From Caenorhabditis remanei (lineage: Eukaryota; Nematoda; Chromadorea; Rhabditida; Rhabditidae), in contig NC_071331.1 in the NCBI RefSeq assembly GCF_010183535.1, positions 4,588,001-4,652,000 of the forward strand: a DNA stretch of 64,000 nucleotides, in the 5' to 3' direction. Below are positions 1 to 61,405 of this stretch, in pieces (positions within the stretch are counted from its first letter, which is position 1; every line of letters starts with the position of its first letter). The translations under genes were made by a program, and so were the position numbers. The notes below the pieces were generated by a model, which worked only from the letters and a program-made list of their open reading frames with translations, had not been told where the DNA came from and ran no database searches.

Positions 1-182
1 GATTGTGCTACCCACAATCGCTCCTACCTTCAATTGTTATTTTACTATTAAAAGTTCAAAAAAAACTTGTTATTGAAAAAGCAGTCTACTGACCACCACG
101 CATCACGAAAAGGACTTTATTTCTAGTCTAATTTGAAGAACATATGGAAGCAGAGCCATTGTCAATCAATTTTTGCACCTTT

Positions 183-190
183 TGAAACAG
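183..190 (-). promoter_or_regulatory. piRNA (21U-RNA) core promoter motif
   Basis: Exact CTGTTTCA on the minus strand. No YRNT falls 38-41 nt downstream; the nearest is at 34 nt. It is duplicated at 32391. Confidence 0.45.
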
Positions 191-390
191 AATATTTTTA
201 GTTTTATGAACTGATTGAAAAAATGAGAAACAACGGATATCAATGTCCCTAAAGTAATGACAAAATGGGGACCGTCATAATTAAAAACAATTTGAATCAT
301 GTTATAATAAATAAACCAATGAAAAGTAGTAAATTCAAACCTAGCATATGATCTGAGTAGAAAGGAATTCCGCCTTCCGCCTTTCGTCTT

Positions 391-457
391 TTCAAAAACG
401 CTCAATACTGAATAAGACATTAATGATAGTAGGGATAAAAATAACACTTTGAAACAG
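391..457 (-). ncRNA. predicted type I 21U-RNA gene
   Basis: Exact CTGTTTCA core at 457-450. TATT places the predicted 5' U at 411, 39 nt past the core. The mature RNA would be 411-391. Duplicated at 32599-32665. Confidence 0.62.
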
Positions 458-1025
458 AAATAGCTGGAAAACCCTTTGAAACTGAAAAGCTACGTCCGAA
501 CAAAATGTTCTGTTGGAATCATGGAAAACGGCTTTTTAGAACATTTCTGAAATAACAATTTTATTGTTTCTATGCGGTCATTAACCAGTATTTGTCATCA
601 TTAGTTTACTATATTCTTTACAATATATGTGAGCTAGATCTTCATAGAAAATAAAAAATCTACAGTTTTTAATTGTGTTCAAGAAGAAAACCCGCATTAT
701 GACTTGTTTAAGATGTTCAAGAAAAAATTGATAACACTGTTTTAATTTCTCCTAATTTTTTATCCTCACCAATTTTTAAGATAATTGCATGGACACCATT
801 GACCTCAACAAAAATACATGGTATTAAAGAAAACGTGGCACAGTAATATATGTATCTCATCATGCTTGAAATTTTTTTTGAAACATAAACGTTCACAATG
901 AAATAACGGGTCGGTTATGTTTACTGTCTTTGAAGTTTATGTGTTTTAAAATTAATTTGGAAAATGTGATTGATATGAGAAGTATCATAAAACATGAAAC
1001 CAAATTTTGATTTCGAGAAACATTC

Positions 1026-1093
1026 CTGTTTCACACTGTCATTCTATATTGGTGGCTGGGAAAGATAAGCAATTTAAGCATAAATCAAAAAAA
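1026..1093 (+). ncRNA. predicted type I 21U-RNA gene
   Basis: Exact CTGTTTCA at 1026-1033. CAAT places the predicted 5' U at 1073 (40 nt). Paralogues with the same core and a CAAT start lie at 19960, 33234 and 37965. Confidence 0.68.
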
Positions 1094-1766
1094 AGAATTA
1101 TGCTCTTATCTTGTTTTACAAGAGCAGCATTAAAGCAAAATGGAACCATTTCAAAGTGCTAAGTTTTTTATATGGATTCACTTGAAATTTCTGATAAAAA
1201 AAATTAAAAATGGCAAAGAAAAATGAGAACATTCTCTTGGCAATACAGTTTCACGTGCGCGAGACAAGATTTTTCTTTGAATTATGGTACGCTTTTTTGA
1301 CCCCTTTGTTGTGAATGACTTCTTCGAGGCCGATTCTCAGATTTACCTCGAAAAAGAAAGAATTTTAATTTTTATAACCTCTTGTTTTTTTCTGATTGTT
1401 TTTATAAGAATAAACGTTGTTTTTCAAAAAATGGAGAAAAGGTGACACCAGAATTGCACAAGGAATGTCGTAGTTCAAAAGATGAAAAGTATGAAAATTG
1501 CAAAACAGTCTGCTTTTGAGTATCGTAACCAATCGATAATTTTTTCTTTCTTTCTAGTAAATAAGTTATAAATCGGACATCAAAATTATTACAGATGCAA
1601 TTACGAACTGATTGATCAATTTTTGAAAAGTGATGCTTTGCTTCTAAAACAGAAATTTTCCTAAGGTATCTTACTAGATAGCAGAGAAATTCAAATGAAC
1701 ATTTTTGTGAATTTCGAACTACAAATATCATTTTGTATTAGAAGAAACTATCAGAATGTTTCAATA

Positions 1767-1833
1767 TTGTGGGAAGAATCTTTGGCACTGAAGCAGAAGG
1801 ACATGCTGCAAAATAAAAATGTTACTGAAACAG
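1767..1833 (-). ncRNA. predicted type I 21U-RNA gene
   Basis: Exact core at 1833-1826 on the minus strand. CAGT places the predicted 5' U at 1787 (39 nt). Duplicated at 33975-34041. Confidence 0.65.
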
Positions 1834-2337
1834 AGAAAAATTCTCATTTGATACAAGTTATTAATTAAATATATTTTTCGCTTTCAAATTATTGTGGAGA
1901 AGGCAAAATAAGAGCGGTCGGAGACTATTGCCTAATCCGTTATTATCACGCAATCTAATATGAATAATGGCTATTTTTGTGTAAGATAAGCAATGCAACC
2001 GGAAATAACAGTACACATGTATACAATGACCCATTTATTACGCTCTCTATCGCGGAATCCCTTGATAAAGCACCAGAAAAAGGTAAAATAAGGTGAAAAT
2101 GATAAAGTTGACGGTATGACGAGCAGGTGACTGCGAGGAGTGCGTGCGGGTGTTGTCATTGATGGCGAAGGGTGAAAAGAGTGACAATGCACCCAAAAAA
2201 CCTTCGGAAAAGATGGAAATCCATTCAAAAGCACTCACATTGCACGCACGCACCTCCCCTGTCGTCTCACTCGCATATACGAAACTATTCGTGATGAACG
2301 AACATTCGAGAACATCTCTGCAGTGAGAGAGTGGAGA

Positions 2338-2541: not shown

Positions 2542-4668
2542 AGTTGGCAACTGAGAGTATTCTCTGGTAAAGTTGACAACACTCCGGGGGGGGAGGGGGC
2601 GACGGATTCTTAGCTTTTGCGCTAGCGTCAGAAATATGCACGTAGTTTATGGGCAAGCTCTTGGCTTTGCGAGAGAGGTATTCTCTGACGCGTCCCGTCG
2701 ACAACTCGGCAAAATTCTTAACTGCAGCTTTAGCTGATATCATCCTGTGTGGATCTTGATAGATGCTCTCGTCTTCTACTCCATTCCCGAGGAGTTTCAA
2801 AGTCCTCGTATTCTGGCTCACCAGGTTCTCCAATACTTTCGAGTTTATCGGTTATTGGGTTCAGTGGTAGATTTGATTCTGGTAAGTTGTACTCAGATTC
2901 AGCAATATTTGGCAAGTCATTTGTAGGGAATAGCTCGGGGGCGTATCTCATGTCGGGATCTTCGAGAATTGCGGGTGTTGGCAGCTCAAATGAGTGGTTG
3001 TCCTCTGCTTGATCAGCTTGCTTAACCGCCTGTGTAGATGGGTGGTTCAGTGGATGTAGTTCAAGCGGGATCAGCTGACAGACTGCACGTGAGTACAACT
3101 TGCCTTTCACCTTGACAATCGCTGAGCGAATTTGTCCATCTCTTTCAGATATTTCGACTTTAGTGATAATGCCTAGTGGCTATTTATGCCCTTTAACCAA
3201 CTTGGTAACAACGATGACCACCTGACCCACTTCCGGTTTGATGAGCGAACAACGCTTCTTTTTGTGCATGTTTTCTCTCAGATGGAGCAAGTATCCTGTC
3301 GACCATAATTAATTACCACATTCGTTCCGTAGCTGCTTCCATTTTATCTAGATGTGCTCGAACTGTTGCCTCAGTACTTCTTGGAGGTACATTAGGGTCT
3401 TCAGATTCAGCTGGAATTTCAGTTAGGACTCCTGGGTTTATGAAATCGAAGGGTCTCAGTGCGACCATGTCTCCTGGAGATCTGGCGTGTGGGATCAGAG
3501 GGCGGTTGTTGACCATTGATTGAGCTCTTGACACGACATATTGAAGCGAATAGTAGTCATACATTCGTGCCCCACACTCTTTGGTGATCTGGGTTTACAC
3601 GAGTTTTACCACTCTTTCGTAGATACCTCCTTGCCATGGAGCGAGAGGTGTGATGAACTTAAAGTTGATCAGTTCTCTGGCGAGGTACTCGACAAGTGAT
3701 TGACTATAATCTGCATTCTTAATGTCTTTGTTGAGGATCTCACTGTTCGACTTGACCGTGGATGCGTTGTCCGAATAGATACTCTTTGGCACTCCGACTT
3801 CTCCGAAGATCATTTTGAGTGTTTGGATGTATCTGTAGGCTGTTCCATCTGGGACAACCTTGAGGACTGCTCCGCGGGTGTTGAGACAGGAGTAGATAAG
3901 GACGTACGCTTTTTGGCTGATCTGCCATCGTCTCGGTACATGATTGGTCTTAGGTAGTCTAGTGCTACATTTGAGAACTGTGTATCTGGAGTAGTACGGC
4001 ATTTAGGGAGATTTTAGTGTATGGATAGTCGAAAGGAAAATTGTTCACTTTCTGACACTCGACACATTCTCTGATGATATTATTATTTTTTTTTTTTTTA
4101 GGATGCCTCCAAGTTTGGGAATCCAATACTTGGTCCGGATTGCGGATACTGTATACGTCTCTGGTAGATGACCATTTATTTCATGTGTCTCTCGAGCGAT
4201 TAGCTGAGCAAGCGGATGTCGATTGTGGATGAAGATGGGCTCGCTGGCTTCCTGTGGAAGTACTGGAGATTCAATTCTTCTGTGCACTCGACGTATTCCT
4301 TGTGTGTCAATTTTGAACTCAATGTCGGTTGGGTATTTGTAGTCAAGTGCTTCACAGTCATTACAATGCTCTGTGATTATGAGCAGTCGAGCTACCTTGG
4401 CTCTGTGGAGCGGGCAGTCTGATTTGGTGAACTGTTTCATCACTTGACTTTCCCATGACTTGTTTTTCAGTGGGATGCTGAATGAGCACAGAATCTGTAC
4501 GACTATTCTAGTCAATTTGGTTAGAGATTTGGTTGCGTAGAACGGAATGAACGATCCTTTCCGAGTGACTCTGATGTCAGTAGTCATCACTGTATCGGAT
4601 GGAGTCTGAGCTTCTTTGTTGGCCGCGGGTGTTGTTTTCTGAGAGAATCCAATGGAGAGCACATGCAC
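2542..4668 (-). pseudogene. BEL/Pao integrase region, decayed
   Basis: In minus-strand order, 4668-4045 carries the zinc-binding H2C2 part (HPLAQLIARETHEINGH and a following WIPK). 4002-3595 carries the integrase core, with YSDNAST for the second catalytic Asp and WQGGIYERVV for the catalytic Glu. 3564-3313 has NNRPLIP, typical of the Pao integrase tail. About 3240-3060 resembles the C-terminal Pao domain (RDGQIRSA, then LIPLE). The parts lie in different frames, and an in-frame TAG interrupts the tail near 3180. A run of T at 4086-4099 breaks the frame after the H2C2 part. The assignment to Pao is firm; the copy is clearly inactive. Confidence 0.85.
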
Positions 4669-9640: not shown

Positions 9641-11235
9641 AATGTCGGAATCATCTGGGCAACATAGCTTCATAGGACCCGCCCATTCCGGCTCCGACTG
9701 ACTGTCGAAGCGTCGAGCATTGGAACCGTAGGTTCGCGAATGCTAGGGTGCCTACTTATAGTGGTTTCCTCAGTCTCCTTTCAGAAACTGATACTGACGA
9801 CGAGCAGCTCTTACAATCACCGGATTCAGCGCGACCGAAGGTCCGCAATATATGCTCCTCATGCAGTGGCTGTTCAAGTAAAACCAGTATTCCAGGTAAT
9901 ATGTTACATACTCGGTCCAGTTAGGCATATCGATTCTATTAGAAATAAGTTTAGCAGTCAGCGCTGTGGCGCAAAGTTATGTCTTTATTAGATGTTTTGT
10001 ATGTTACGCTAACTAGATCAGTGGTTTTATCGTGTTAGTGTCACGGTCACCCTGTCTATGTTTCACGCACGATATTGTAACTTTTTGCTGCGTATTCTTA
10101 TAACTAACTTCATCGATATCAATCAATACAGATTTGCTGCAAGAACATGATAAAAACAGCCGTCCAGACGGCGTCTTGTCTGCGTTATATCTCTTTGTAG
10201 TGCGATATTTCTTTGTGAATTCGTTGTTCAAATTCCTCGGGTACCAGCCAAGGATTTGATGTTCGAAATCTCGCTACCAACGTCATTACTCATGTAGGCC
10301 TCTGCGTATCAGCTGATCAGACTGATACAGACAACCTTCTTTCCGCTACAATCTGTAACTGCCACTTATAGACCTTATTCAGTCAACAAAGTCACGTGCA
10401 TTGGCTTAATGAGTATTCTGTTGGGTCCTCCGGAGCTGGTGACTCCTTCGGATACTACAATGTCCTGGATACTACTCAGCTTTGACTACCGTCAGCGCTA
10501 TAGTTTATGTATTCTAGTAACATCTCTATATTTCAATTATAGCCGAAGCTATAACCTAACTTTCGGAATAACAATCCCAAATGGGCGAAGTTTCCCTGAA
10601 CCTAGCCGAAGCTTGTGGTCACGTGGGGGATACCTCTATTGAAGTTGGTGAGTTCAATGCAATCGCACCTTACTCGAGATGTTTGACTTCCGGCTCTAAA
10701 TTGAATTTCACTTCATATGAACCGTCCGTCTGTGTTGCAACTGACTGATGTTATAAAACAGATGTTTTGTCGAGCAGAAGCGGATGGAGTTTGCCACAGA
10801 GCATGTGATGTTTTGATCGTAGAACGTGTACTCGTTGTGGACTTTTGATGATGTCTGCTTCACGAGCAGTCTTGTTGGTGCCTATACAGGTCTTCTGAAG
10901 TTTGACGTTGGCCAAGAGACAAGCGTCTGTATTGTGGATGATGTGTCATCATTTAATGTGCAAATATGTTTTGCGGATTCGTGAAAATTTATTTGGGTTT
11001 GTCATTCCCGTGATTCTGATACTCTTTGAGTAATCAGTGTGTACCTATATGGTGTTGTTGTAGCTAAAATGTGTTGCTGAAAGTTTGTGTTCGAAAGAGC
11101 ACCTCTTGTTGCGTAAATCATCATCTCATCCTCTCAGAATGTTCCGTGATTCCACCTGAAACAGATGTATCCGGCAGTGTATTCTCTTCATGAATCTCAA
11201 AGAAACTCTGGAAGTTGTACGAGATAACAGTTTAA
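9641..11235. other. no gene recognised
   Basis: About 1.6 kb with no ORF that resembles a known protein, no CTGTTTCA core and no clear inverted or direct repeat. It may hold the lost 5' end of the Pao element and the downstream flank of the gene ending at 11415. Confidence 0.5.
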
Positions 11236-11239
11236 TATC

Positions 11240-16791: not shown

Positions 16792-16857
16792 CTGTTTCAT
16801 AAAAATGTAATATTTTTGATACATCTTTGGCATTAGTGAGTTAGTGAAAGATTTAAA
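16792..16857 (+). ncRNA. predicted type I 21U-RNA gene
   Basis: Exact core at 16792. TAGT puts the predicted 5' U at 16837 (38 nt). The copy at 34583 has a 20-bp duplication between core and start. Confidence 0.6.
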
Positions 16858-19747: not shown

Positions 19748-19813
19748 AAAATGGTATGATACAGAAAATTGGTGTTTGTTTTGAGTGAACTAGATTAAGA
19801 CTTTTTGAAACAG
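19748..19813 (-). ncRNA. predicted type I 21U-RNA gene
   Basis: Exact core at 19813-19806. CAAT puts the predicted 5' U at 19768 (38 nt). The paralogue at 37817-37810 has lost one core base. Confidence 0.6.
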
Positions 19814-19959: not shown

Positions 19960-20026
19960 CTGTTTCACACTATCATTATAAACTGGTGGCTGAAAAAATA
20001 AGCAATTCCTGGTTGATCAAACTTAG
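19960..20026 (+). ncRNA. predicted type I 21U-RNA gene
   Basis: Exact core at 19960. CAAT puts the predicted 5' U at 20006 (39 nt). Paralogous to 1026, 33234 and 37965. Confidence 0.68.
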
Positions 20027-20538: not shown

Positions 20539-20604
20539 CTGTTTCAAACTGATATAAACTGGCAACTAACATTAAGCGCTTGTTATTTCGTTTGACTCAT
20601 TTTC
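20539..20604 (+). ncRNA. predicted type I 21U-RNA gene
   Basis: Exact core at 20539. TGTT puts the predicted 5' U at 20584 (38 nt). Paralogues at 23128 and 27721 keep core and start. Confidence 0.66.
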
Positions 20605-21765: not shown

Positions 21766-21834
21766 GCAGCCAGTGGAAAATTTCTATTAGCGATTGAGCT
21801 CGATTTCCAAGACCAAAAATTGTATTTGAAACAG
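21766..21834 (-). ncRNA. predicted type I 21U-RNA gene
   Basis: Exact core at 21834-21827. TAAT puts the predicted 5' U at 21786 (41 nt). Confidence 0.55.
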
Positions 21835-22220: not shown

Positions 22221-22228
22221 TGAAACAG
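22221..22228 (-). promoter_or_regulatory. piRNA core promoter motif
   Basis: Exact CTGTTTCA on the minus strand, duplicated at 26607. No YRNT at 38-41 nt. Confidence 0.42.
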
Positions 22229-22715
22229 AAATGTATGTATGAAAATAGAAAAAATAGTGGAGCAGAATGGCAAAAAAAAATGCAGGCAAAAATAACGAAG
22301 CATGTTTCCTAGTTAGTTTTAGTTTTAATATCATATAAAATTTTAGGATGTGCAATTTATAACCAAATGAATAGCCCGTGATGAAATATAAGAATATTGT
22401 GGAACAGAAACGGTGTGATATTTTTCGACAGATTCAAGCATGCAGATAATAAAAAGTGGAAAGTGAACATAGGAAAACCCAATATCAAGCCTATTTTTTC
22501 TCAATCTTACGCTCAGTCGTATATATTTTATCTATGAACTCTGACTTGCCCACTTCCCAAGAACTTCTTCAATTCGATCACTAGTTAGTCGATTTACAGT
22601 TTCGATAATAAGCAATAATGAATTAAAAACTTTTTCTTCAATAATATCCAACAGATTCCAAAACATAACTTTTTACTTTAACAAAAACTAAGGTTTCTGA
22701 CAAAAAATAAAATAT

Positions 22716-22723
22716 TGAAACAG
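22716..22723 (-). promoter_or_regulatory. piRNA core promoter motif
   Basis: Exact CTGTTTCA on the minus strand, duplicated at 27261. No YRNT at 38-41 nt. Confidence 0.42.
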
Positions 22724-23127: not shown

Positions 23128-23193
23128 CTGTTTCAAACCGATATAAACAGCCAACTACCGTTAAGCGCTTGTTATTTTGTTTGACCAGTTTCT
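23128..23193 (+). ncRNA. predicted type I 21U-RNA gene
   Basis: Exact core at 23128. TGTT puts the predicted 5' U at 23173 (38 nt). Paralogous to 20539 and 27721. Confidence 0.66.
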
Positions 23194-23716: not shown

Positions 23717-23724
23717 CTGTTTCA
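23717..23724 (+). promoter_or_regulatory. piRNA core promoter motif
   Basis: Exact CTGTTTCA. The nearest YRNT is CATT with T at 36 nt, short of the usual spacing. Paralogues at 28528 and 28790. Confidence 0.48.
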
Positions 23725-23950
23725 AGTCGTCAATGAGTTTGGGACATCAGACTCAGCATTTCTGGAAGTGGTGCTAGAAAATAAAGAAAATATAAAACAT
23801 TTCACTATTTCACCGACTTCACATAATCAGTGACCACAATAGACATACGATATATTTACTCCATGGGTGTCTCTCATTATAACTTTCTTTGAAATCACCG
23901 CTTATTTGAAAAAGATACGTATTTTCCTTGAAAATTTACTGATGATCTAT

Positions 23951-24017
23951 CTGTTTCAGTTCGGGCATTTTATGTAACCATCCTGATGGACGTTGCTCTG
24001 GTTCGTCCAAAAGCTAC
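23951..24017 (+). ncRNA. predicted type I 21U-RNA gene
   Basis: Exact core at 23951. TGCT puts the predicted 5' U at 23997 (39 nt). The paralogue at 28980 keeps the core but not the start signal. Confidence 0.62.
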
Positions 24018-24853: not shown

Positions 24854-24921
24854 CTGTTTCAATCTGAGCATTTCCAAACACGTTGGAATCCTCAAGTCAA
24901 TAAGTACAGTATGCGACCATT
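24854..24921 (+). ncRNA. predicted type I 21U-RNA gene
   Basis: Exact core at 24854. CAAT puts the predicted 5' U at 24901 (40 nt). Its paralogues at 29533 (CACT) and 30839 (CAGT) keep core and spacing while the product sequence differs. Confidence 0.75.
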
Positions 24922-25020: not shown

Positions 25021-25088
25021 CTGTTTCAGTGACATAATTATTGCAACTTTTAATTAACTTCTTTTAGTGATATTTTTTGCAAAGTATG
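25021..25088 (+). ncRNA. predicted type I 21U-RNA gene
   Basis: Exact core at 25021. TAGT puts the predicted 5' U at 25068 (40 nt). Paralogue at 31020 with the same spacing. Confidence 0.72.
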
Positions 25089-26606: not shown

Positions 26607-26614
26607 TGAAACAG
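26607..26614 (-). promoter_or_regulatory. piRNA core promoter motif
   Basis: Exact CTGTTTCA on the minus strand, paralogue of 22221. No YRNT at 38-41 nt. The element ending at 26563 lies just downstream of the expected start. Confidence 0.4.
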
Positions 26615-26824: not shown

Positions 26825-27260
26825 ATGTGCAGGCAAAATAACGATGCATGCTTGCTAGTTAGCTTTAGTTTTAATAGCATATAAAATATTAGGATGTGCA
26901 ATCTATAACCAAATGAATAGCCCGTGATGAAATATAAGAATATTGTGGAACAGAAACGGTGTGATATTTTTGCAGATTGAAGCATGCAGATTATAAAAAG
27001 TGGAAAGTGAACATAGAAAAAACCAATATCAAGCCTATTTTTTCTCAATCTTACGCTCAGTCGTATTTATTTTATCTATGAACTCTGACTTGCCCACTTC
27101 CCAAGAACTCCTTCAATTCGATCACTAGTTAGTCGATTTACAGTTTCGATAATAAGCAATAATGAATTAAAAACTTTTATTTCAATAAAACCCAATAGAA
27201 AGTTCCAAGATAACTTCTTACTTCAACAAAAACTAAGGTTTCTGACAAAAAATAAAAAAT

Positions 27261-27268
27261 TGAAACAG
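27261..27268 (-). promoter_or_regulatory. piRNA core promoter motif
   Basis: Exact CTGTTTCA on the minus strand, paralogue of 22716. No YRNT at 38-41 nt. Confidence 0.42.
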
Positions 27269-27515: not shown

Positions 27516-27581
27516 ACAAAAAGGTTCGATTTCGAATCAGAAATGAATAATATCAGTAAAATTGGATAACTTATGAAACAG
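27516..27581 (-). ncRNA. predicted type I 21U-RNA gene
   Basis: Exact core at 27581-27574. TGAT puts the predicted 5' U at 27536 (38 nt). Confidence 0.6.
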
Positions 27582-27720: not shown

Positions 27721-27786
27721 CTGTTTCAAACCGATATAAACCGCCAACTACCGTTAAGCGCTTGTTATTTTGTTTGACCAATTTCT
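27721..27786 (+). ncRNA. predicted type I 21U-RNA gene
   Basis: Exact core at 27721. TGTT puts the predicted 5' U at 27766 (38 nt). Paralogous to 20539 and 23128. Confidence 0.66.
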
Positions 27787-28527: not shown

Positions 28528-28592
28528 CTGTTTCAAGTCATCAATGATTTTGGGGTCATCAAACTCGGTATTATCTGAATAGTGGTTAGAAA
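28528..28592 (+). ncRNA. possible type I 21U-RNA gene
   Basis: Exact core at 28528. TATT puts a T at 28572, 37 nt past the core, one base short of the common range. Paralogous to 28790. Confidence 0.5.
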
Positions 28593-28789: not shown

Positions 28790-28855
28790 CTGTTTCAAGT
28801 CGTCAATGAGTTTGAAGACATCAATCTTCGGTATTATCAGAATAGTGGTTAGAAA
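28790..28855 (+). ncRNA. predicted type I 21U-RNA gene
   Basis: Exact core at 28790. TATT puts the predicted 5' U at 28835 (38 nt). Confidence 0.62.
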
Positions 28856-28979: not shown

Positions 28980-28987
28980 CTGTTTCA
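28980..28987 (+). promoter_or_regulatory. piRNA core promoter motif
   Basis: Exact CTGTTTCA, paralogue of 23951. No YRNT at 38-41 nt. Confidence 0.45.
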
Positions 28988-29532: not shown

Positions 29533-29600
29533 CTGTTTCAATCTGACCATTTCTAACCGTGTTGTAGTTCTCAAATCACTTTCATCATCGAACTCCGTTT
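29533..29600 (+). ncRNA. predicted type I 21U-RNA gene
   Basis: Exact core at 29533. CACT puts the predicted 5' U at 29580 (40 nt). See 24854 for its paralogues. Confidence 0.73.
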
Positions 29601-30482: not shown

Positions 30483-30551
30483 CTGTTTCACTACTTTTAT
30501 ATCCAAACAGGATAATACTAGTGATTTTATTAACCATTCCGTCGTTTCAAA
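30483..30551 (+). ncRNA. predicted type I 21U-RNA gene
   Basis: Exact core at 30483. TATT puts the predicted 5' U at 30531 (41 nt). Confidence 0.57.
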
Positions 30552-30838: not shown

Positions 30839-30906
30839 CTGTTTCAATCTGAGCAATTCCTAACACGTTGGATTCCTCAAGTCAGTAAGTCTATGTGCAT
30901 ACTGTA
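30839..30906 (+). ncRNA. predicted type I 21U-RNA gene
   Basis: Exact core at 30839. CAGT puts the predicted 5' U at 30886 (40 nt). Confidence 0.74.
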
Positions 30907-31019: not shown

Positions 31020-31087
31020 CTGTTTCAGTGACATAATTATTGCAACTTTCAATAACTTTCCTTTAGTAGTGTTCTGCGACTTTGTGA
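31020..31087 (+). ncRNA. predicted type I 21U-RNA gene
   Basis: Exact core at 31020. TAGT puts the predicted 5' U at 31067 (40 nt). Paralogue of 25021. Confidence 0.72.
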
Positions 31088-32390: not shown

Positions 32391-32398
32391 TGAAACAG
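32391..32398 (-). promoter_or_regulatory. piRNA core promoter motif
   Basis: Exact CTGTTTCA on the minus strand, identical copy of 183. Confidence 0.45.
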
Positions 32399-32598
32399 AA
32401 TATTTTTAGTTTTATGAACTGATTGAAAAAATGAGAAACAACGGATATCAATGTCCCTAAAGTAATGACAAAATGGGGACCGTCATAATTAAAAACAATT
32501 TGAATCATGTTATAATAAATAAACCAATGAAAAGTAGTAAATTCAAACCTAGCATATGATCTGAGTAGAAAGGAATTCCGCCTTCCGCCTTTCGTCTT

Positions 32599-32665
32599 TT
32601 CAAAAACGCTCAATACTGAATAAGACATTAATGATAGTAGGGATAAAAATAACACTTTGAAACAG
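32599..32665 (-). ncRNA. predicted type I 21U-RNA gene
   Basis: Copy of 391-457 with the same core, TATT and 39-nt spacing. Predicted 5' U at 32619. Its RNA could not be told apart from the first copy by sequencing. Confidence 0.6.
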
Positions 32666-33233
32666 AAATAGCTGGAAAACCCTTTGAAACTGAAAAGCTA
32701 CGTCCGAACAAAATGTTCTGTTGGAATCATGGAAAACGGCTTTTTAGAACATTTCTGAAATAACAATTTTATTGTTTCTATGCGGTCATTAACCAGTATT
32801 TGTCATCATTAGTTTACTATATTCTTTACAATATATGTGAGCTAGATCTTCATAGAAAATAAAAAATCTACAGTTTTTAATTGTGTTCAAGAAGAAAACC
32901 CGCATTATGACTTGTTTAAGATGTTCAAGAAAAAATTGATAACACTGTTTTAATTTCTCCTAATTTTTTATCCTCACCAATTTTTAAGATAATTGCATGG
33001 ACACCATTGACCTCAACAAAAATACATGGTATTAAAGAAAACGTGGCACAGTAATATATGTATCTCATCATGCTTGAAATTTTTTTTGAAACATAAACGT
33101 TCACAATGAAATAACGGGTCGGTTATGTTTACTGTCTTTGAAGTTTATGTGTTTTAAAATTAATTTGGAAAATGTGATTGATATGAGAAGTATCATAAAA
33201 CATGAAACCAAATTTTGATTTCGAGAAACATTC

Positions 33234-33301
33234 CTGTTTCACACTGTCATTCTATATTGGTGGCTGGGAAAGATAAGCAATTTAAGCATAAATCAAAAAA
33301 A
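33234..33301 (+). ncRNA. predicted type I 21U-RNA gene
   Basis: Copy of 1026-1093. Predicted 5' U at 33281. Confidence 0.66.
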
Positions 33302-33974
33302 AGAATTATGCTCTTATCTTGTTTTACAAGAGCAGCATTAAAGCAAAATGGAACCATTTCAAAGTGCTAAGTTTTTTATATGGATTCACTTGAAATTTCT
33401 GATAAAAAAAATTAAAAATGGCAAAGAAAAATGAGAACATTCTCTTGGCAATACAGTTTCACGTGCGCGAGACAAGATTTTTCTTTGAATTATGGTACGC
33501 TTTTTTGACCCCTTTGTTGTGAATGACTTCTTCGAGGCCGATTCTCAGATTTACCTCGAAAAAGAAAGAATTTTAATTTTTATAACCCCTTGTTTTTTTC
33601 TGATTGTTTTTATAAGAATAAACGTTGTTTTTCAAAAAATGGAGAAAAGGTGACACCAGAATTGCACAAGGAATGTCGTAGTTCAAAAGATGAAAAGTAT
33701 GAAAATTGCAAAACAGTCTGCTTTTGAGTATCGTAACCAATCGATAATTTTTTCTTTCTTTCTAGTAAATAAGTTATAAATCGGACATCAAAATTATTAC
33801 AGATGCAATTACGAACTGATTGATCAATTTTTGAGAAGTGATGCTTTGCTTCTAAAACAGAAATTTTCCTAAGGTATCTTACTAGATAGCAGAGAAATTC
33901 AAATGAACATTTTTGTGAATTTCGAACTACAAATATCATTTTGTATTAGAAGAAACTATCAGAATGTTTCAATA

Positions 33975-34041
33975 TTGTGGGAAGAATCTTTGGCACTGAA
34001 GCAGAAGGACATGCTGCAAAATAAAAATGTTACTGAAACAG
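33975..34041 (-). ncRNA. predicted type I 21U-RNA gene
   Basis: Copy of 1767-1833. Predicted 5' U at 33995. Confidence 0.63.
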
Positions 34042-34582
34042 AGAAAAATTCTCATTTGATACAAGTTATTAATTAAATATATTTTTCGCTTTCAAATTAT
34101 TGTGTTCAATGAACCGATAACTGGAACAAATAGTAATACCGGGTTTAACTTGGCTAGAGACATCAGTGCTAGCAGAAAGTTGTAGTGAACTGTAAAGAGA
34201 AACGAAAAACAATGAAACAATAAAAAAATTGTATTTGAAACATTCATTAAACAGAAAATATTCAATGCAGAGATTGGTTTGATCGACTGTTTTACTAAAA
34301 CAATTGTTTGTAGTTGTTTTCTCTAATGAAGACTTCGAAATATCACTCTTTAACACTTCTTTCATCAACCATGTTGACAAAAAGCTTTACAGCCTTCCAG
34401 CCTTACAACTTTGCAGCTGTACATGCAATCAGTAGAATTACTTCATATAACGAATGAGCTCAGAGTCCAAGAATAAAAATAAAATTTATATCAGACTATT
34501 TATGACAATAGAAATAATAATTTTTTATAAATAAATTGTAGAACTGTAGAAGTTTATGTACAAGAAAGTTGGTGATTTTCCA

Positions 34583-34651
34583 CTGTTTCATAAAAATGTA
34601 ATATTTTTGATACATCTTTGGCTTTTTTGATACATCTTTGGCATTAGTGAG
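34583..34651 (+). ncRNA. 21U-RNA gene copy with altered spacing
   Basis: Exact core at 34583. A 20-bp tandem duplication (34603-34622 / 34623-34642) moves the start used in copy A to 58 nt. TGAT at the junction now puts a T at 34631 (41 nt), so a different product is possible. Confidence 0.45.
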
Positions 34652-35187
34652 TTAGTGAAAGATTAAAAAAATTGTTTTTTGTCGGTGAATTTACAACTTT
34701 ATTTCAACTTTTCAAACATAAATTCTGTCATTTTAGTCAGATTCTCTCCAAAATCTCTCAATGTTCTACTAAATTTTCGAAAATCGGGCCCAGGCAGCAC
34801 GGGTAGGCGCAATTTCTCACCTGCAGGTCTGAATATTGTTCCATATTTTCGGGTAGTCCGGCTTTCAGACAATTTATTATGAAACTTCCAGAGAAAACTA
34901 ACTGCTCAAAAAATGATATTTCAGAAATATTAGGAAATATAGAAACAGTGACAAAAATTGTAATGCTCATCTCAGTTTCCATCAGAAACCACTACAACAC
35001 GAAGAAGAATGAAAAATATTCAAAAATCACAAGTTTTATGAACTTTTTGAGACAAATGGTCTAAAGTTTGGAAAACATGACATTTACGCTTCTGATAGTA
35101 TGACTCAACTATAAAATGAAAATGAGAAAAAATTACATATTGCAGCAGAAACAAAAAAAGCAGACACATATTTTGATGAATTTCAAC

Positions 35188-35649
35188 TGTACCAAAAAGA
35201 AGGAGAATTAGGTTTCCCTAGCGTCAGTACGTGCTTAAATAGGCTAGAAATAGTCCTGGAAAATGATAAGGATCTATTTCGCCAGGAAAATCACACACTC
35301 TCTCGCATTCTACAAAGGATAGTAGTACAACCTCACTCGTTGAACAAGATAAAGATAAAGATGCGCGGTGGACCGCGACGCGAACACGCTCGCCGCCGAC
35401 GGCATTAGAGAGAGTTTTGATGTGGAGGAGAGTGCGATTCTTTACTGACAAAAGGGAATGTTTACTGACAAAAGGGAATTAAGAGCGGTAATTTGAATTA
35501 TAATTATTTGAATATTCCTGATAACAGGAGATTGAAAAGAGATAAATAAAGTGAATTAGTGAACAGATTGAAACAATATTGAAATAAGAAATTAGTAAGG
35601 CGGTGATGAGCCTAGTTTAGAGGGAAAACCACATAAGGGTCATCATTCA
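35188..35649 (-). mobile_element. solo Pao-type LTR
   Basis: Copy B counterpart of 17378-18439 without the nested hAT-like element and with a 20-bp tandem duplication at 35441-35480. Ends TG...CA in LTR orientation. It contains no retrotransposon gene. Confidence 0.65.
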
Positions 35650-36660
35650 TTGTTAATCGAATTTCGTCACTTTTGAAACTGTGCTTTTGCAACAGTACTT
35701 TTTAGTCTTACAGACTGATTGAAAAGATGAAGGGAAAACCAACAGATATTAATATGCTTACATTAATGACAAAACGTAGCCCATCGCAATTAAAAACAAT
35801 TTGAAACATGTATCAAACAATTTAAAAAACAATGAAACATTCAAAGTGGCAAATGCAAACCCATGTGTCATTAATGATAGTGGTCTGTTTTTCTTTAGAA
35901 ATTTCTGAATAATAATTTTATTGTTTCTCTGCGGTAATTAACAATGACTGTTTTTGGATGTTACTATTCCTTGACTGGCATCAACAGTTTACTATATATT
36001 TCCACAGTGAAAGTGAGCTAGAAAAAATAAAAAATCTACAGTTTCTAATTCTGTTCAAGAAACCCACATCATCATTTGGTTTCTATCCACTTAGTAGATT
36101 GATAACACAATAATTGCATGGACACCATTGACCTCTAAAAAAATACATGGTATTACAGAAAACATGACACAGTAATATATCTCATCATAATTGAAATGTT
36201 TTTGATGTTCTCTTTTGAGCTGTAGATATTTTGCTATCGATGGAGATCTAGCTCGGCTTCACTGTAAGAACACAGAGTAAGCTACTGATGACAACTGGGA
36301 AGAACAATAAAAGAACAACAAGCACATTGTTGGAGCAGACAGGGGGAATTGGAAATAAGTTACACAATAATCACTATGTCAATAATACTTCCACTGTCTT
36401 ATGAGAATTAAAAAAAGTAAAATCGTCGTGGCGGAACAGTAATTACATTTACAAAAGTGAAACTCTCGAGGATATGTGGAAATAATAGTTTTGAGAGAAT
36501 ATCTGTCGCTATACTTTTTTGACAGTATTTCCAGTATCAGTTTGGCGTATATGTGTATGAAGATTCAAGAACAGTTCATATTGGTTACCTTGAAATCGTT
36601 GGTTGCAACAATAATAAAATTTGAAAAGGCGAACTTCTTTCTTACTTTAAAATAACATTT

Positions 36661-37964: not shown

Positions 37965-38031
37965 CTGTTTCACACTATCATTATAAGTTGGTGGCTGGGA
38001 AAATAAGCAATTCCCGGTTGATCAAACTTAG
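37965..38031 (+). ncRNA. predicted type I 21U-RNA gene
   Basis: Exact core at 37965. CAAT puts the predicted 5' U at 38011 (39 nt). Paralogue of 19960. Confidence 0.68.
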
Positions 38032-41197: not shown

Positions 41198-41263
41198 GCA
41201 ACCAACTGGATCGACCCAACACCAGAAAAATAATACATCATTTTTAAGTGTTATCTGAAACAG
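41198..41263 (-). ncRNA. predicted type I 21U-RNA gene
   Basis: Exact core at 41263-41256. TGTT puts the predicted 5' U at 41218 (38 nt). It lies in a block of about 200 bp duplicated at 51536-51755. Confidence 0.6.
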
Positions 41264-41774: not shown

Positions 41775-41841
41775 TAGTTTTGGGCAATGGTACAAACATA
41801 CCAAATTAACGAAACGAGGTCTTCTGGTTATTCTGAAACAG
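41775..41841 (-). ncRNA. predicted type I 21U-RNA gene
   Basis: Exact core at 41841-41834. TGTT puts the predicted 5' U at 41795 (39 nt). Confidence 0.63.
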
Positions 41842-42661: not shown

Positions 42662-42728
42662 GGTTGAAAAACTTCCCATATATCAATCACCAGCGGATCA
42701 GACACTCGATAAAACATTTCTGAAACAG
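42662..42728 (-). ncRNA. predicted type I 21U-RNA gene
   Basis: Exact core at 42728-42721. TGAT puts the predicted 5' U at 42682 (39 nt). Confidence 0.62.
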
Positions 42729-43037: not shown

Positions 43038-43045
43038 TGAAACAG
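43038..43045 (-). promoter_or_regulatory. piRNA core promoter motif
   Basis: Exact CTGTTTCA on the minus strand. The region 38-41 nt downstream is GC-rich with no T, so it is probably not productive. Confidence 0.35.
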
Positions 43046-43155: not shown

Positions 43156-43221
43156 CTGTTTCAGCATGTGTACATGAGGAAGGATTTTTACAATTATTAA
43201 TAAAGTAGAGCTCCGATAAAC
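43156..43221 (+). ncRNA. predicted type I 21U-RNA gene
   Basis: Exact core at 43156. TAAT puts the predicted 5' U at 43201 (38 nt). Confidence 0.6.
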
Positions 43222-48325: not shown

Positions 48326-48393
48326 CTGTTTCAATAGTTCAACATCAAGTTATAAAGTAAACTATATTTTATTCACATTGTTGGTTGGTTCAC
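48326..48393 (+). ncRNA. predicted type I 21U-RNA gene
   Basis: Exact core at 48326. TATT puts the predicted 5' U at 48373 (40 nt). Confidence 0.66.
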
Positions 48394-48713: not shown

Positions 48714-48780
48714 ATATTAAAAGAACACACTTCAATGTCAACAAAATGCAAATTAAATAATAGTAGACGTCCTGAAACAG
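48714..48780 (-). ncRNA. predicted type I 21U-RNA gene
   Basis: Exact core at 48780-48773. CATT puts the predicted 5' U at 48734 (39 nt). Confidence 0.64.
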
Positions 48781-48898: not shown

Positions 48899-48965
48899 GC
48901 TATTTGAGAAACTTGGATACTGTACGCAAGGAATGCACTATTAAGATAAAACGTATGTGAAACAG
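48899..48965 (-). ncRNA. predicted type I 21U-RNA gene
   Basis: Exact core at 48965-48958. CAGT puts the predicted 5' U at 48919 (39 nt). Confidence 0.66.
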
Positions 48966-51535: not shown

Positions 51536-51755
51536 TATCTTGTAACTGCATAGTTTTTAATTTATTTTTGGCAGAAGTCGAAAATATACAGTAAAAATTA
51601 GCGAAAAATTGCAACCAACAGGAATAACCCAACACCAGAAAAATAATATTTCATTGTCAAGTGTTATCTGAAACAGACAATATTTTCAATACTGTTTCTC
51701 ACCTGCACGATAGCAAAAAATTATTTTCTAAAACCGTTCCGCGCAATTCATTTCC
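51536..51755. repeat. duplicated piRNA block (partner about 41125-41340)
   Basis: Diverged copy of 41125-41340 that keeps the minus-strand core and the following CTGTTTCT variant. Each copy has a GGCCCGG-type element close by: it lies about 40 bp downstream of this copy and just upstream of the other. Confidence 0.82.
51611..51676 (-). ncRNA. predicted type I 21U-RNA gene
   Basis: Exact core at 51676-51669. TGTT puts the predicted 5' U at 51631 (38 nt). Paralogue of 41256. Confidence 0.6.
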
Positions 51756-52870: not shown

Positions 52871-52936
52871 CTGTTTCACGTTTCCCTGTTCAACAAGCAT
52901 AACAATCTGCAGTATTAAAGATCCTAGTGCATATTT
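52871..52936 (+). ncRNA. predicted type I 21U-RNA gene
   Basis: Exact core at 52871. TATT puts the predicted 5' U at 52916 (38 nt). Confidence 0.6.
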
Positions 52937-54255: not shown

Positions 54256-54263
54256 TGAAACAG
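54256..54263 (-). promoter_or_regulatory. piRNA core promoter motif
   Basis: Exact CTGTTTCA on the minus strand. No YRNT at 38-41 nt; the nearest T in such a context is at 35 nt. Confidence 0.42.
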
Positions 54264-56373: not shown

Positions 56374-56441
56374 CTGTTTCACAATATACATAAGGTACGA
56401 TAAATGAAGAGTATTTACAATTGCTCAATCAGATTTAATAG
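56374..56441 (+). ncRNA. predicted type I 21U-RNA gene
   Basis: Exact core at 56374. CAAT puts the predicted 5' U at 56421 (40 nt). Confidence 0.68.
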
Positions 56442-57004: not shown

Positions 57005-57072
57005 AAATTGCTAGATGCTTTTGAAGTAAATTGCGTAAATAACAGACATCTCAGATTTTGACTATGAAACAG
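57005..57072 (-). ncRNA. predicted type I 21U-RNA gene
   Basis: Exact core at 57072-57065. TACT puts the predicted 5' U at 57025 (40 nt). Confidence 0.66.
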
Positions 57073-57286: not shown

Positions 57287-57294
57287 CTGTTTCA
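57287..57294 (+). promoter_or_regulatory. piRNA core promoter motif
   Basis: Exact CTGTTTCA. The only nearby YRNT puts a T at 44 nt. A DNA element begins at 57392. Confidence 0.42.
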
Positions 57295-58009: not shown

Positions 58010-58076
58010 TTAATAAAAAACCACGGATCAATAGTCCGAAGATTTGTGAAAACTAATTCTTGGCAATCTGAAACAG
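58010..58076 (-). ncRNA. predicted type I 21U-RNA gene
   Basis: Exact core at 58076-58069. TATT puts the predicted 5' U at 58030 (39 nt). Confidence 0.64.
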
Positions 58077-58226: not shown

Positions 58227-58293
58227 AATTTGTATAATGATAAATCACTGAAATCTTTGAACGTGTTTTCTGTTTCAGTTGTCCGTGAAACAG
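58227..58293 (-). ncRNA. predicted type I 21U-RNA gene (interlocked pair)
   Basis: Exact core at 58293-58286. CAGT puts the predicted 5' U at 58247 (39 nt). Its spacer contains the plus-strand core at 58270. Confidence 0.6.
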
Positions 58294-58338
58294 GAAACAA
58301 AAAAAAAGGTTTTTTGCTTTACAAAATATTTAACAAGG
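58270..58338 (+). ncRNA. predicted type I 21U-RNA gene (interlocked pair)
   Basis: Exact core at 58270. TGCT puts the predicted 5' U at 58318 (41 nt). Its spacer contains the minus-strand core at 58286 and a long A run. Confidence 0.5.
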
Positions 58339-58339
58339 T

Positions 58340-60610
58340 ATTGAAACGACTAATGCATTGATTGTTATTGTATCGAATTAGTTGTGAGCTCTTTGAGGGG
58401 ATTATTAGTCTAATGAAATCACGTCTGAATAAAAGTGTATCATAATTGTTCCGTGCAAAACAAACTAATCATCCCCTCAAATCAATAAAACAAAATTCCG
58501 TTTCTCTAATGTGGCTTTTTTGTAGTATTTTTTGCTTCTATCGAGTTTTATTTTCGCCCTCAATCAAGTTATATTGTGAACCGGTTGAAATAATTCGCCA
58601 AACCTTGATACAAGCATTAAGTAACAAGTTGTTACAGCAATATATTCAACATTGGAATTCTAGTTAAAGGCTTCCCGATACTAATTTGTAATTTGAAACT
58701 GAAAACTTTTAATGTAATTTATTACTCAAATTTCTAATTCTTCAGCTAATTTTTAGTTTCAACGCTAATCCAAACAAGAATAAAGTTAGAACTTTCTCAA
58801 AACGCCTTTTTTTTAAATTTGACTTGAAATCCTAAAAAATTGAAGAATACGCTGAAAATCAGACACATTGCACTGAAATCAAATATTGGGACCAACTTGT
58901 TTGGCTGCGTTTGGAAGGTTCTTTTCACCTGAATGATTAACAGATTGAGAACCTTCATAAATTTAGATGTACCGAAAACATACAAACGGTCATTCCAATT
59001 TCCTCTGATAAGTTTTTCATACTCATTACTTGAAACCGAACAATTCATGTTCTATTGGTTATTTCGCACGAGGAATCGAATGCTGTTACCCATTTTTCAT
59101 GAAAACTTACGGCTGAGCCAGATCTGACATAATTGCAAGGGGGCTATCTTTATGACGCGCACTGTATACAGATTATAATTTTTTATTTCCTTCATAACTT
59201 GGTGACGTACGGAATTTCAAGCATTTTATTTATTTCTGTTCTGTTTTTTTTTCATTAAATTACTGTAGGTTTTTGAATAAAAGGAATTGAAGCATAAAAT
59301 CTATTAAAGCTTTATGCTGAAATCCTCAGAAGATATAAAATGCCAAAATTGAAACTCACAGAATTTCTGGGAAAAGTTTCTGAAAAGCAGTCTTCTTTTA
59401 AGCTCGTGTTTAGATCCATTTAATGTTTCTCACTGTTTATTTCAAATATAAAACTACTCTGCAACAGTCGAAAACAACAAAAATATTGATTAGTCAAAAA
59501 CAATTTACTGCCTCTCTAAAAAAAATTGTGATATTTCAAAATTATATAAATTAAAAATTAAAATGAGTGGGTGGAATTCGCAGTATAATGAATCAAAAAC
59601 TTCATTTCATATGAAACCAAAGAAACCGCAATTTATAGTTTTTATAGAAGATATTTTATGTCAGTTCTGAAAACTTCACTGATTCTACAATTCTTGTTTA
59701 GTAGGTGTTTTGTAAAAACACCGATATTACTTCCCAATAGTTTTAAAATAGTCCAGCGTCTTACGGTTGTCTATATTTTGAATTAAACATATATTATTTC
59801 ACATTTGAGTCTTTGAAAATGTTGTCTCATTGATTTCGTTTATTTATGGGTTCGCTCAGTGTCTTCCATGCTCAAATTGTCAAAATATGTAAACTTGTAT
59901 TATAACTTTTGGTTTTCCGATTCGATTAATAGTAAATTCAACAAGCACTTTCTAATCTTTCAAAAATATTGAGAAACAGGTAATTGAAGTTTGAATATTG
60001 ATCAGTTTCAAGTGAAAATTACTAACGTTTTACACACATCTTTATGTGCTGAACTATATACTCAGAGAACAGTAAGTTGACGCATTGAATGAAAAAAACA
60101 AGCAGCAACTTTAGATTGAACCGAAGCAGGAAAACTATCAGGCAAGATAATTTGTGAGAATCAACAATATCTTTGGCAACCCATATACATAGATTTTTTT
60201 TCTCATCAAGCTCCATAGCTTTTATGCTTACCAATATTTTTTCAACCGCGGTGAATAATCTTGGACTTCTGAAACAAGAAAAAAACGCTATAAAGAGTAG
60301 AAAGAAGTGAGGGCTTGTGTTCTTGTTTTCTGAATCTGAACGAAAAACCGCACATATATCGTCCAACTTTTGCCAATGAATATTCAACAAGAGTTTGAAA
60401 CGGGCTCAGTTTTAGAAATAAAAATGACAACATGTCTCTCAAATCAGTAACATTGACAAATAAATGCAAAATATTCAAAACTCCAAAATAAAAATCATAA
60501 ACCTCGCGAAAATCAGTAGAAAATTAATTTTTGGCTGAAGACAAGTCTATTTTCTGCTCTTTTGGACCATTTTCCCATTTAATTCTGCGAATCGTATTCT
60601 TCGTAAATTT
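58340..60610. other. intergenic, no gene recognised
   Basis: Only near-miss cores (TGAAACTG, TGAAACAA, TGAAACGG). The minus-strand frames 59048-58797 and 60390-60022 have no recognisable domain, and I could not build splice structures around them. Confidence 0.4.
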
Positions 60611-60718
60611 CACAGTTGTGAAATGACGCAAGTCGGAAGTAAAATTTTCAAAGCGGAAGTCGGAAGTCGGAAGTGAAATAATCCCGGAAGTCGGAAGTCG
60701 GATGTCCGCACAACTCTG
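60611..60718. mobile_element. degraded hAT-like MITE, GGAAGTCGGAAGT type
   Basis: The right end CCGCACAACTCTG is intact and the interior is GAAGTCGGAAGTCGG, as in the 49012 family. The left end (CACAGTTGTG) is degenerate and no target duplication is seen. Confidence 0.6.
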
Positions 60719-60820
60719 ATAGATGAACCGAAAACAACGAAAAGGAAGTTTAGTAGTTTTACCGTTAATTTTACAATCGTTGTTGAAATGAACTTTCGAT
60801 GGATTTTTTTTTTCAGTTAA

Positions 60821-60888
60821 CTGTTTCATTTTTATTTCTTCAATCTGCTCTTTTAATATTTGAGTATTGGATTTACTCGTTTTTTTTT
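60821..60888 (+). ncRNA. predicted type I 21U-RNA gene
   Basis: Exact core at 60821. TATT puts the predicted 5' U at 60868 (40 nt). Confidence 0.66.
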
Positions 60889-61332
60889 GGAATATTGTAA
60901 TAACTTTTCGGTTTCTAAATAATATTATTTTGCTGTATATATTGAAAATTCGTTTGCACAGAAAAAATGAATGCATAATATCAATGAAACTTTTATAACT
61001 CTAGATTGTAAGACACCGAACGAATTCAATTGTTTTAATGTTTTAAGATCTACACATATCCATTCTTAAAACCACATTTTTCGTTAAAATCAATTTTGAG
61101 CTTGCAGCCAAGCCAAGCAATACCAAGCAGCCAAGCTAGCCATAGACTCGCAATTCCCACAGATGACGTCATCATTTCTTTTCTACATAAATTCACTGTA
61201 TTATGTTCAATTTTTTGGCTAGACGCGTTTTATTTCTCAATTCTGGACTCAAAACAGAAATACTCATGTGTACATATTTTAAGTTCCTATCACGCTGACA
61301 ACAGTTCGAATCCATGTATGTCGCTTGCAGAT

Positions 61333-61400
61333 AGATTTCTATCGTTTCGTACACTGAACTTTTGAAAATGCTGGCCATGCTAATCATCAATATGAAACAG
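61333..61400 (-). ncRNA. predicted type I 21U-RNA gene
   Basis: Exact core at 61400-61393. CAGT puts the predicted 5' U at 61353 (40 nt). The LTR element starts 6 bp upstream of the core, so the promoter's upstream flank is now transposon sequence. Confidence 0.62.
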
Positions 61401-61405
61401 GAAAT

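What the first reader, a model, noticed from the sequence alone, without database searches (positions are those of the whole stretch)
1..61405. The gene-poor DNA is a type I piRNA (21U-RNA) gene cluster
By eye I find 52 exact CTGTTTCA/TGAAACAG octamers outside the two retroelement segments (27 plus, 25 minus). With one third each A and T and one sixth each C and G, about 1.8 would be expected in 47 kb on both strands. CTGTTTCA is the known core of the upstream motif of C. elegans 21U-RNA genes, each an independent small Pol II unit in AT-rich DNA. Many one-mismatch versions (TGAAACAC, CTGTTTCT, CGAAACAG) add to this. A protein-centred annotation would call this region empty.
Basis: partly seen in the sequence, partly recalled or inferred. 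Interest (0 to 1): 0.92.

Follow-up and report, generated by a model that had tools for sequence, protein, structure and literature searches.

The report
Worm piRNA gene cluster, C. remanei
This stretch of roundworm chromosome IV is packed with what look like tiny, individually driven genes for germline guard RNAs (piRNAs), as known from related worms, and local copies of it suggest that the promoters are kept while the 21-letter RNA sequences drift.

Summary
Contig lengths identify the genome as Caenorhabditis remanei PX506; the window is chromosome IV 4,588,001-4,652,000. The octamers collapse to 36 families once local duplications are removed. The decisive test is spacing: in 27 of 36 families a YRNT start puts a U 45-47 nt after the octamer start, against 25% in control windows; chromosome IV samples outside the window agree (46 of 66, against 21%), while a decoy with 50 octamers in 10 kb does not (7 of 49). 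This matches the C. elegans type I 21U-RNA promoter. One-mismatch cores are positioned too, giving roughly 78 positioned promoters in 45 kb, duplicates included. Between duplicated copies identity peaks over the octamer and is lowest over the predicted 21-nt RNA; control sites are flatter. So it is a type I 21U-RNA domain: a known kind, in a species whose 21U-RNAs have been sequenced (review passage). No RNA reads were available here.

The parts
183..190 (-). core octamer, no YRNT start at +43..+50
391..457 (-). predicted 21U-RNA gene (octamer to 21-nt end), U at 411
1026..1093 (+). predicted 21U-RNA gene, U at 1073
1767..1833 (-). predicted 21U-RNA gene, U at 1787
4432..4499 (+). octamer with YRNT inside the retroelement-like segment, U at 4479; doubtful
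11097..11164 (-). octamer with YRNT inside the retroelement-like segment, U at 11117; doubtful
16792..16857 (+). predicted 21U-RNA gene, U at 16837
19748..19813 (-). predicted 21U-RNA gene, U at 19768
19960..20026 (+). predicted 21U-RNA gene, U at 20006
20539..20604 (+). predicted 21U-RNA gene, U at 20584
21769..21834 (-). predicted 21U-RNA gene, U at 21789
22221..22228 (-). core octamer, no YRNT start at +43..+50
22660..22723 (-). predicted 21U-RNA gene, U at 22680 (spacing +43)
23128..23193 (+). predicted 21U-RNA gene, U at 23173
23717..23780 (+). predicted 21U-RNA gene, U at 23760 (spacing +43)
23951..24017 (+). predicted 21U-RNA gene, U at 23997
24854..24921 (+). predicted 21U-RNA gene, U at 24901
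25021..25088 (+). predicted 21U-RNA gene, U at 25068
26607..26614 (-). core octamer, no YRNT start at +43..+50
27205..27268 (-). predicted 21U-RNA gene, U at 27225 (spacing +43)
27516..27581 (-). predicted 21U-RNA gene, U at 27536
27721..27786 (+). predicted 21U-RNA gene, U at 27766
28528..28592 (+). predicted 21U-RNA gene, U at 28572 (spacing +44)
28790..28855 (+). predicted 21U-RNA gene, U at 28835
28980..28987 (+). core octamer, no YRNT start at +43..+50
29533..29600 (+). predicted 21U-RNA gene, U at 29580
30483..30551 (+). predicted 21U-RNA gene, U at 30531 (spacing +48)
30839..30906 (+). predicted 21U-RNA gene, U at 30886
31020..31087 (+). predicted 21U-RNA gene, U at 31067
32391..32398 (-). 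core octamer, no YRNT start (copy of 183-190)
32599..32665 (-). predicted 21U-RNA gene, U at 32619 (copy of 391-457)
33234..33301 (+). predicted 21U-RNA gene, U at 33281 (copy of 1026-1093)
33975..34041 (-). predicted 21U-RNA gene, U at 33995 (copy of 1767-1833)
34583..34651 (+). predicted 21U-RNA gene, U at 34631 (spacing +48; copy of the 16792 site with a 20-bp tandem repeat inside)
37965..38031 (+). predicted 21U-RNA gene, U at 38011
41198..41263 (-). predicted 21U-RNA gene, U at 41218
41775..41841 (-). predicted 21U-RNA gene, U at 41795
42662..42728 (-). predicted 21U-RNA gene, U at 42682
43038..43045 (-). core octamer, no YRNT start at +43..+50
43156..43221 (+). predicted 21U-RNA gene, U at 43201
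48326..48393 (+). predicted 21U-RNA gene, U at 48373
48714..48780 (-). predicted 21U-RNA gene, U at 48734
48899..48965 (-). predicted 21U-RNA gene, U at 48919
51611..51676 (-). predicted 21U-RNA gene, U at 51631
52871..52936 (+). predicted 21U-RNA gene, U at 52916
54256..54263 (-). core octamer, no YRNT start at +43..+50
56374..56441 (+). predicted 21U-RNA gene, U at 56421
57005..57072 (-). predicted 21U-RNA gene, U at 57025
57287..57294 (+). core octamer, no YRNT start at +43..+50
58010..58076 (-). predicted 21U-RNA gene, U at 58030
58227..58293 (-). predicted 21U-RNA gene, U at 58247
58270..58338 (+). predicted 21U-RNA gene, U at 58318 (spacing +48), overlapping the one at 58227-58293 on the other strand
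60821..60888 (+). predicted 21U-RNA gene, U at 60868
61333..61400 (-). predicted 21U-RNA gene, U at 61353
1..1896 (.). duplicated segment, 99.8% identical to 32209-34104
32209..36660 (.). second copy of 1-1896 + 16317-17618 + 18251-19453, without the 14.4-kb segment 1897-16316

Best explanation
The gene-poor DNA of the window is part of a type I piRNA (21U-RNA) domain on C. remanei chromosome IV. Each unit is a small Pol II gene: the core CTGTTTCA or a one-mismatch form of it, a spacer of 37-39 nt, then a YRNT initiator whose T becomes the 5' U of a 21-nt RNA. In C. elegans the core recruits the USTC (SNPC-4, PRDE-1, TOFU-4, TOFU-5), Pol II starts about 2 nt upstream of the U, and a short capped precursor is trimmed and loaded into PRG-1 to direct 22G-RNA silencing in the germ line. 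Here the promoter anatomy, the spacing and its conservation between local copies are shown; transcription, factor binding and PRG-1 loading are inferred from relatives.
For: Enrichment: 54 octamers against 4.33 in shuffles. Independence: 36 families. Fixed spacing: YRNT with U at +45..+47 in 27 of 36 families (25 of 34 without the two sites in the retroelement-like segment) against a control mean of 25% (largest control window 42%), Fisher P 8e-7. The same peak shows in 19 other chromosome IV samples (46 of 66, control 21%, P 2e-12). Letter-permuted octamers show none (0.076 per position at +45..+47 against 0.080 background, 1445 sites). One-mismatch cores are positioned too (33 of 60 for the first-base variants and 32 of 50 for the others, controls 26% and 25%); GTTTC sites with two or more mismatches hardly are (40 of 143, control 23%, P 0.11). 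Domain: four C4 samples from 2.9 to 6.8 Mb carry 7-9 octamers per 10 kb, close to the window's 8.4; five 8-kb samples on the other chromosomes hold 1 in 40 kb. Evolution: in duplicated alignments 70-85% identical, 14 of 21 octamer positions are conserved where 4.2 are expected (pairs not all independent). In 23 paralogous pairs identity is 0.917 over the 20-nt window holding the octamer and 0.776 over the predicted RNA. Published C. elegans values agree: spacer about 35-42 nt, core G most often at -44 (PMC3597512 passages); YR before the U and CTGTTTCA within clusters on chromosomes I and IV of C. briggsae (PMC9683057 passages).
Against: No small RNA, capped RNA or ChIP data were available. 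8 of 54 octamers have no YRNT at +43..+50, and about a quarter of +45..+47 hits are expected by chance. The window also has raised YRNT rates at +41 and +42 (9 and 10 of 40) and +17 (10 of 40), which the model does not explain; in the outside samples +41 and +42 are only weakly raised (7 and 6 of 61). Those offsets were not among the controls. Window spacer GC is 0.323 against 0.330 for the region, so an A/T-rich spacer is not distinguishable in such AT-rich DNA, and no clear low-melting valley was seen downstream (GC 0.317 at +21..+27 against 0.326 in the 21-mer). Not every sample inside the presumed domain is rich: C4:8.10 Mb has none in 10 kb.
Confidence: 0.94

Rival explanations
1. The octamer is a word inside a dispersed or tandem repeat, so its abundance reflects repeat copies and not promoters.
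For: 18 of 54 sites are extra copies made by local duplication. At C4:23.70 Mb a stretch with 50 octamers in 10 kb has no start-site signal (7 of 49).
Against: 36 families remain after collapsing copies, and 27 of 36 keep the spacing to YRNT.
Confidence: 0.03
2. The octamers are 3' splice-site words (TTTCAG) or intronic elements of unannotated genes.
For: 16 of 54 octamers are followed by G, and in the decoy at C4:23.70 Mb 33 of 50 are.
Against: A splice-site word predicts no YRNT at a fixed 45-47 nt downstream, yet the sites followed by G show it as well as the others (13 of 16 and 26 of 38). Both strands are used about equally, and of 28 ORFs or ORF pieces scanned only one had a Pfam match at E 0.001.
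Confidence: 0.02
3. It was a piRNA domain but much of it is now silent or decaying, the promoters being relics carried along by duplication.
For: 8 of 54 octamers lack a YRNT at +43..+50; two retroelement-like segments lie in the window (sub-threshold domains); no expression data.
Against: Octamers are conserved between diverged copies beyond expectation (14 of 21 against 4.2), and identity is highest over the promoter core, which relics would not show.
Confidence: 0.08

Closest known systems
Type I (Ruby motif) 21U-RNA genes of C. elegans, chromosome IV clusters
   Same: Core CTGTTTCA; spacing of the U (core G at -44 there, U at +45..+47 from the octamer start here); YR before the U; chromosome IV (passages)
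   Different: Species; spacer not clearly more A/T-rich than its surroundings here; expression not seen here. The individual 21-nt sequences were not compared between species
C. briggsae piRNA clusters (chromosome I 9.8-12.0 Mb; IV 0.02-7.1 and 13.0-15.0 Mb)
   Same: Ruby motif with YR initiator, left part of chromosome IV (PMC9683057 passages)
   Different: The C. remanei samples suggest a domain at about 2.9-12 Mb of chromosome IV with another rich sample at 18.5 Mb; on chromosome I only one 8-kb sample and eight 3-kb loci near its start were seen
C. remanei 21U-RNAs found by small RNA sequencing (reviewed in PMC6468775)
   Same: Same species and RNA class; two to three times more 21U-RNAs than in the selfing species (review passage)
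   Different: I could not compare the published sequences with the predicted ones; the primary paper was not seen

Membership tests
Type I 21U-RNA gene cluster | Core octamer CTGTTTCA enriched over chance | tested here: met
   54 against 4.33 in shuffles; 36 families
Type I 21U-RNA gene cluster | Spacer of about 35-42 nt between core and the RNA's 5' U | tested here: met
   U at +45..+47, i.e. spacer 37-39 nt: 27 of 36 families, control 25%
Type I 21U-RNA gene cluster | YR(N)T initiator ending in the 5' U | tested here: met
   Peak in the window and, separately, in 19 other chromosome IV samples
Type I 21U-RNA gene cluster | A/T-rich spacer | tested here: inconclusive
   Spacer GC 0.323 in the window, region 0.330; 0.290 in other chromosome IV sites
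Type I 21U-RNA gene cluster | Low-melting region downstream of the RNA (termination signal) | tested here: inconclusive
   GC only, no melting model: +21..+27 is 0.317 in the window and 0.298 in other chromosome IV sites, against 0.326 and 0.342 in the 21-mer
Type I 21U-RNA gene cluster | Megabase domain on chromosome IV | tested here: met
   C4 is chromosome IV by length; 20 C4 samples and 5 samples elsewhere. Sampling is sparse, so borders are not set
Type I 21U-RNA gene cluster | Rapidly diverging 21-nt sequence behind a conserved promoter | tested here: met
   23 paralogous pairs inside the window; no comparison between species made
Type I 21U-RNA gene cluster | 21-nt 5'-U RNAs that depend on PRG-1 | not testable with these tools
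   No reads. 67 Piwi-domain matches exist in the genome, but their clade was not assigned
Type I 21U-RNA gene cluster | SNPC-4/PRDE-1/TOFU-4/5 binding | not testable with these tools
   No ChIP data

The most novel reading that the evidence does not exclude
Local tandem and segmental duplication is a main source of new 21U-RNA genes: the promoter cassette is kept by selection while the 21-nt payload is released and diverges faster than the DNA on either side, so each duplication yields a new guide sequence under a ready-made promoter.
Probability: 0.35. Interest if true: 0.6.

Novelty: new member of a known kind. Interest (0 to 1): 0.33.

Why it matters
It shows that a 21U-RNA domain can be recognised from raw sequence by octamer plus start-site spacing, and that the octamer alone misleads, as the decoy at C4:23.70 Mb shows. 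The duplicated copies bear on a question that the C. briggsae study calls open, how new piRNA genes arise (PMC9683057 passage): 18 of 54 octamers here come from local duplication, and the predicted RNA body is the least conserved part of the copies.

Tried and rejected
Rfam at gathering thresholds: no match in the window. No tRNA, but the scan is set for bacteria. Pfam on retroelement ORFs: nothing at E 0.001; at E 5 only sub-threshold reverse transcriptase (16.2 bits, cut-off 29.6), integrase (16.4, cut-off 32.6) and gag-protease (15.2, cut-off 28.2) matches among others that I take as chance, one of them a viral family at 19.4 bits (cut-off 25); so 'retroelement' rests on weak evidence. Pfam on 28 ORFs or ORF pieces: one hit, the T-box. 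The window's spacer and downstream GC gave no clear signal. Forkhead-site reading: forkhead proteins bind CTGTTTCA in vitro in C. elegans (passage), but a bare binding site does not predict the fixed YRNT spacing. Assigning a PIWI-clade gene was dropped because the loci could not be cut out. The script stopped with an error in its last part (paralogue comparison), which was rewritten and run; the parts that I cite had printed. Literature: nine searches, listings only; in them I saw no map of C. remanei piRNA clusters on the PX506 assembly and no title on 21U genes arising by local duplication, but the listings are capped, the library lacks most subscription journals, and the primary C. remanei small RNA paper was not seen. 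One listed paper holding both '21U-RNA' and 'segmental duplication' (PMC10990930) was not opened. Papers opened, passages only: PMC3597512, PMC9683057, PMC6468775, PMC10461856, PMC6436959 (the last has no mention of C. remanei).


Full report
Where it is. The window lies at G000:C4:4588001-4652000. The six large contigs have 17,247,545, 19,935,723, 17,877,849, 25,790,997, 22,502,457 and 21,501,900 bases, identical to chromosomes I-X of Caenorhabditis remanei PX506 in Table 1 of PMC10461856 (passage seen). That table ends the left arm of IV at 8,639 kb, so the window is in the left arm.

The observation. Shuffles give 4.33, largest 11. The genome holds 19,000 octamers against 6,781 of the reversed word, i.e. 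146 per Mb against 844 per Mb in the window. Under order-1 to order-3 models only CTTC-type tandem words rank above it among the octamers of the 47-kb part (rank 6, 8, 8); under order 5, which contains most of the word, the excess falls to 1.66-fold and rank 22.

Independence. The window has many local duplications: 1-1896 and parts of 16317-19453 recur at 32209-36660 at 98-99.8% identity, and older copies at about 79-97% identity link 20-25 kb with 26-31 kb. Grouping octamers whose surroundings align in register leaves 36 families from 54 sites, two of them single sites inside the retroelement-like segment. An earlier ungapped grouping gave 40.

The spacing test. In the C. elegans literature the core is separated from the RNA by about 35-42 nt and its G lies most often at -44 from the U (PMC3597512 passages). 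In 19 chromosome IV samples outside the window (L027 left out and treated apart) the YRNT frequency peaks with U at +45..+47 from the octamer start: 46 of 66 sites have one, control windows 21%. In the window 27 of 36 families do, control 25% (25 of 34 without the two retroelement-segment sites). In the L027 decoy 7 of 49 do, control 21%; in eight C1 loci 3 of 8, control 18%. The position +45..+47 was read off both profiles at once, so it was not fixed before the window was seen, but the peak stands in the outside samples alone. The window profile also has raised values at +41, +42 and +17 (9, 10 and 10 of 40), which lie outside the control offsets and which I do not explain.

More promoters than the exact word. 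In 16317-61405 the first-base variants (33 of 60) and the other one-mismatch GTTTC cores (32 of 50) are also positioned, so subtracting control rates gives about 28 + 24 + 26 positioned sites in 45 kb, duplicates included. GTTTC sites with two or more mismatches are not clearly so in the window (40 of 143, P 0.11); in the eight outside samples from 2.9 to 12 Mb there is a weak excess (68 of 242, control 22%, P 0.011), and in all 19 none (114 of 600). The five samples on other chromosomes with six C1 loci show no significant excess in any class.

Domain. Octamers per 10 kb in 20 C4 samples, in order from 0.3 to 25.0 Mb: 2, 0, 9, 8, 7, 8, 0, 5, 8, 5, 1, 1, 1, 2, 7, 1, 0, 1, 50 and 0; the 50 is the decoy. 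Five 8-kb samples on C1, C2, C3, C5 and C6 have 0, 0, 0, 0 and 1. Within the window no octamer lies between 43163 and 48326, the interval that holds the T-box ORF.

Evolution inside the window. In same-strand self-alignments 70-85% identical, 14 of 21 octamer positions are identical, 4.2 expected from the conservation of all 8-column blocks; at 85-97% it is 5 of 7 against 3.9; above 97% 5 of 5 against 4.9. Six of 58 alignments are below 70% and outside these bins; they hold one octamer, not conserved. Some alignments share sites, so the counts are not independent. For promoters with at most one mismatch and a YRNT at +45..+47, one search gave 27 pairs. One search dropped three near-identical repeats (33234, 33454, 35809) and any site whose partner lacks the aligned position (27581), leaving 23. 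Sliding 20-nt identity peaks at 0.917 in the window holding the octamer (-50..-31 from the U) and is lowest, 0.776, at 0..19, the predicted RNA. The profile of 30 control GTTTC sites (two or more mismatches) is flatter, 0.80 to 0.87, with a shallow dip of its own to 0.802 at 10..29. The RNA body is less conserved than the 40 nt downstream in 16 of 20 untied pairs (Wilcoxon P 0.0018) and less than the spacer in 19 of 23 (P 0.0003); for controls 16 of 29 (P 0.14) and 17 of 29 (P 0.07). With 27 pairs the octamer-minus-upstream difference alone was not significant (bootstrap P 0.10). I read this as a kept promoter with a free-running payload; pairs that share a copy make the P values optimistic.

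Mechanism. Shown here: promoter anatomy, spacing, sites on both strands without long same-strand order (25 of 53 neighbours on the same strand), chromosome IV domain, conservation. Inferred from C. elegans and C. briggsae (passages of PMC3597512, PMC9683057, PMC6468775, PMC6436959): USTC recruitment, short capped Pol II precursors, trimming, PRG-1 loading and 22G-RNA silencing. PMC6436959 reports that piRNA-dense contigs of the majority of its Caenorhabditis species map to C. elegans chromosome IV, so the location is expected; C. remanei is not named there.

Verdict. It is a known kind of locus in a species whose 21U-RNAs have been sequenced (review passage). What goes a little beyond is the footprint in the duplicated copies and the decoy, which shows that octamer density alone is not proof.

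Noticed in passing
L027 (C4:23,700,001-23,710,000): 50 CTGTTTCA in 10 kb (37 +, 13 -), 33 of 50 followed by G, with no YRNT spacing signal. By eye the first 3 kb look like long introns between coding pieces. An octamer-rich decoy whose cause is unknown.
   Followed up: partly
1897-16316: A 14.4-kb segment with weak (sub-threshold) reverse transcriptase and integrase matches on the minus strand is absent from the 98-99.8% identical copy at 32209-36660, so it marks an insertion or deletion after (or a haplotype difference at) the duplication; no clear target-site duplication by eye.
   Followed up: partly
14393-15330: Inverted repeat with 344-nt arms, 98% complementary, 250 nt apart, inside the retroelement-like segment; could be a foldback element.
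   Followed up: no
45256-46979 (+): T-box transcription factor gene (Pfam T-box 61.7 bits on the ORF 45256-45786; the following ORFs at 46025 and 46416 gave no match, so the gene's extent is inferred) in an octamer-free gap of about 5 kb.
   Followed up: partly
39452-39984 and 54967-55416: Two related CTTC-type arrays with a 40-41-bp period about 15 kb apart; CTTC-type words are the only octamers ranked above CTGTTTCA under order-1 to order-3 models.
   Followed up: no
58227-58338: Two octamers 16 bp apart on opposite strands, each with its own YRNT: overlapping predicted 21U-RNA genes on the two strands.
   Followed up: no
36661-37449 and 50736-50976: Two inverted-repeat elements found as self-alignments in reverse orientation (91% and 86% identity), possibly MITE-like.
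   Followed up: no
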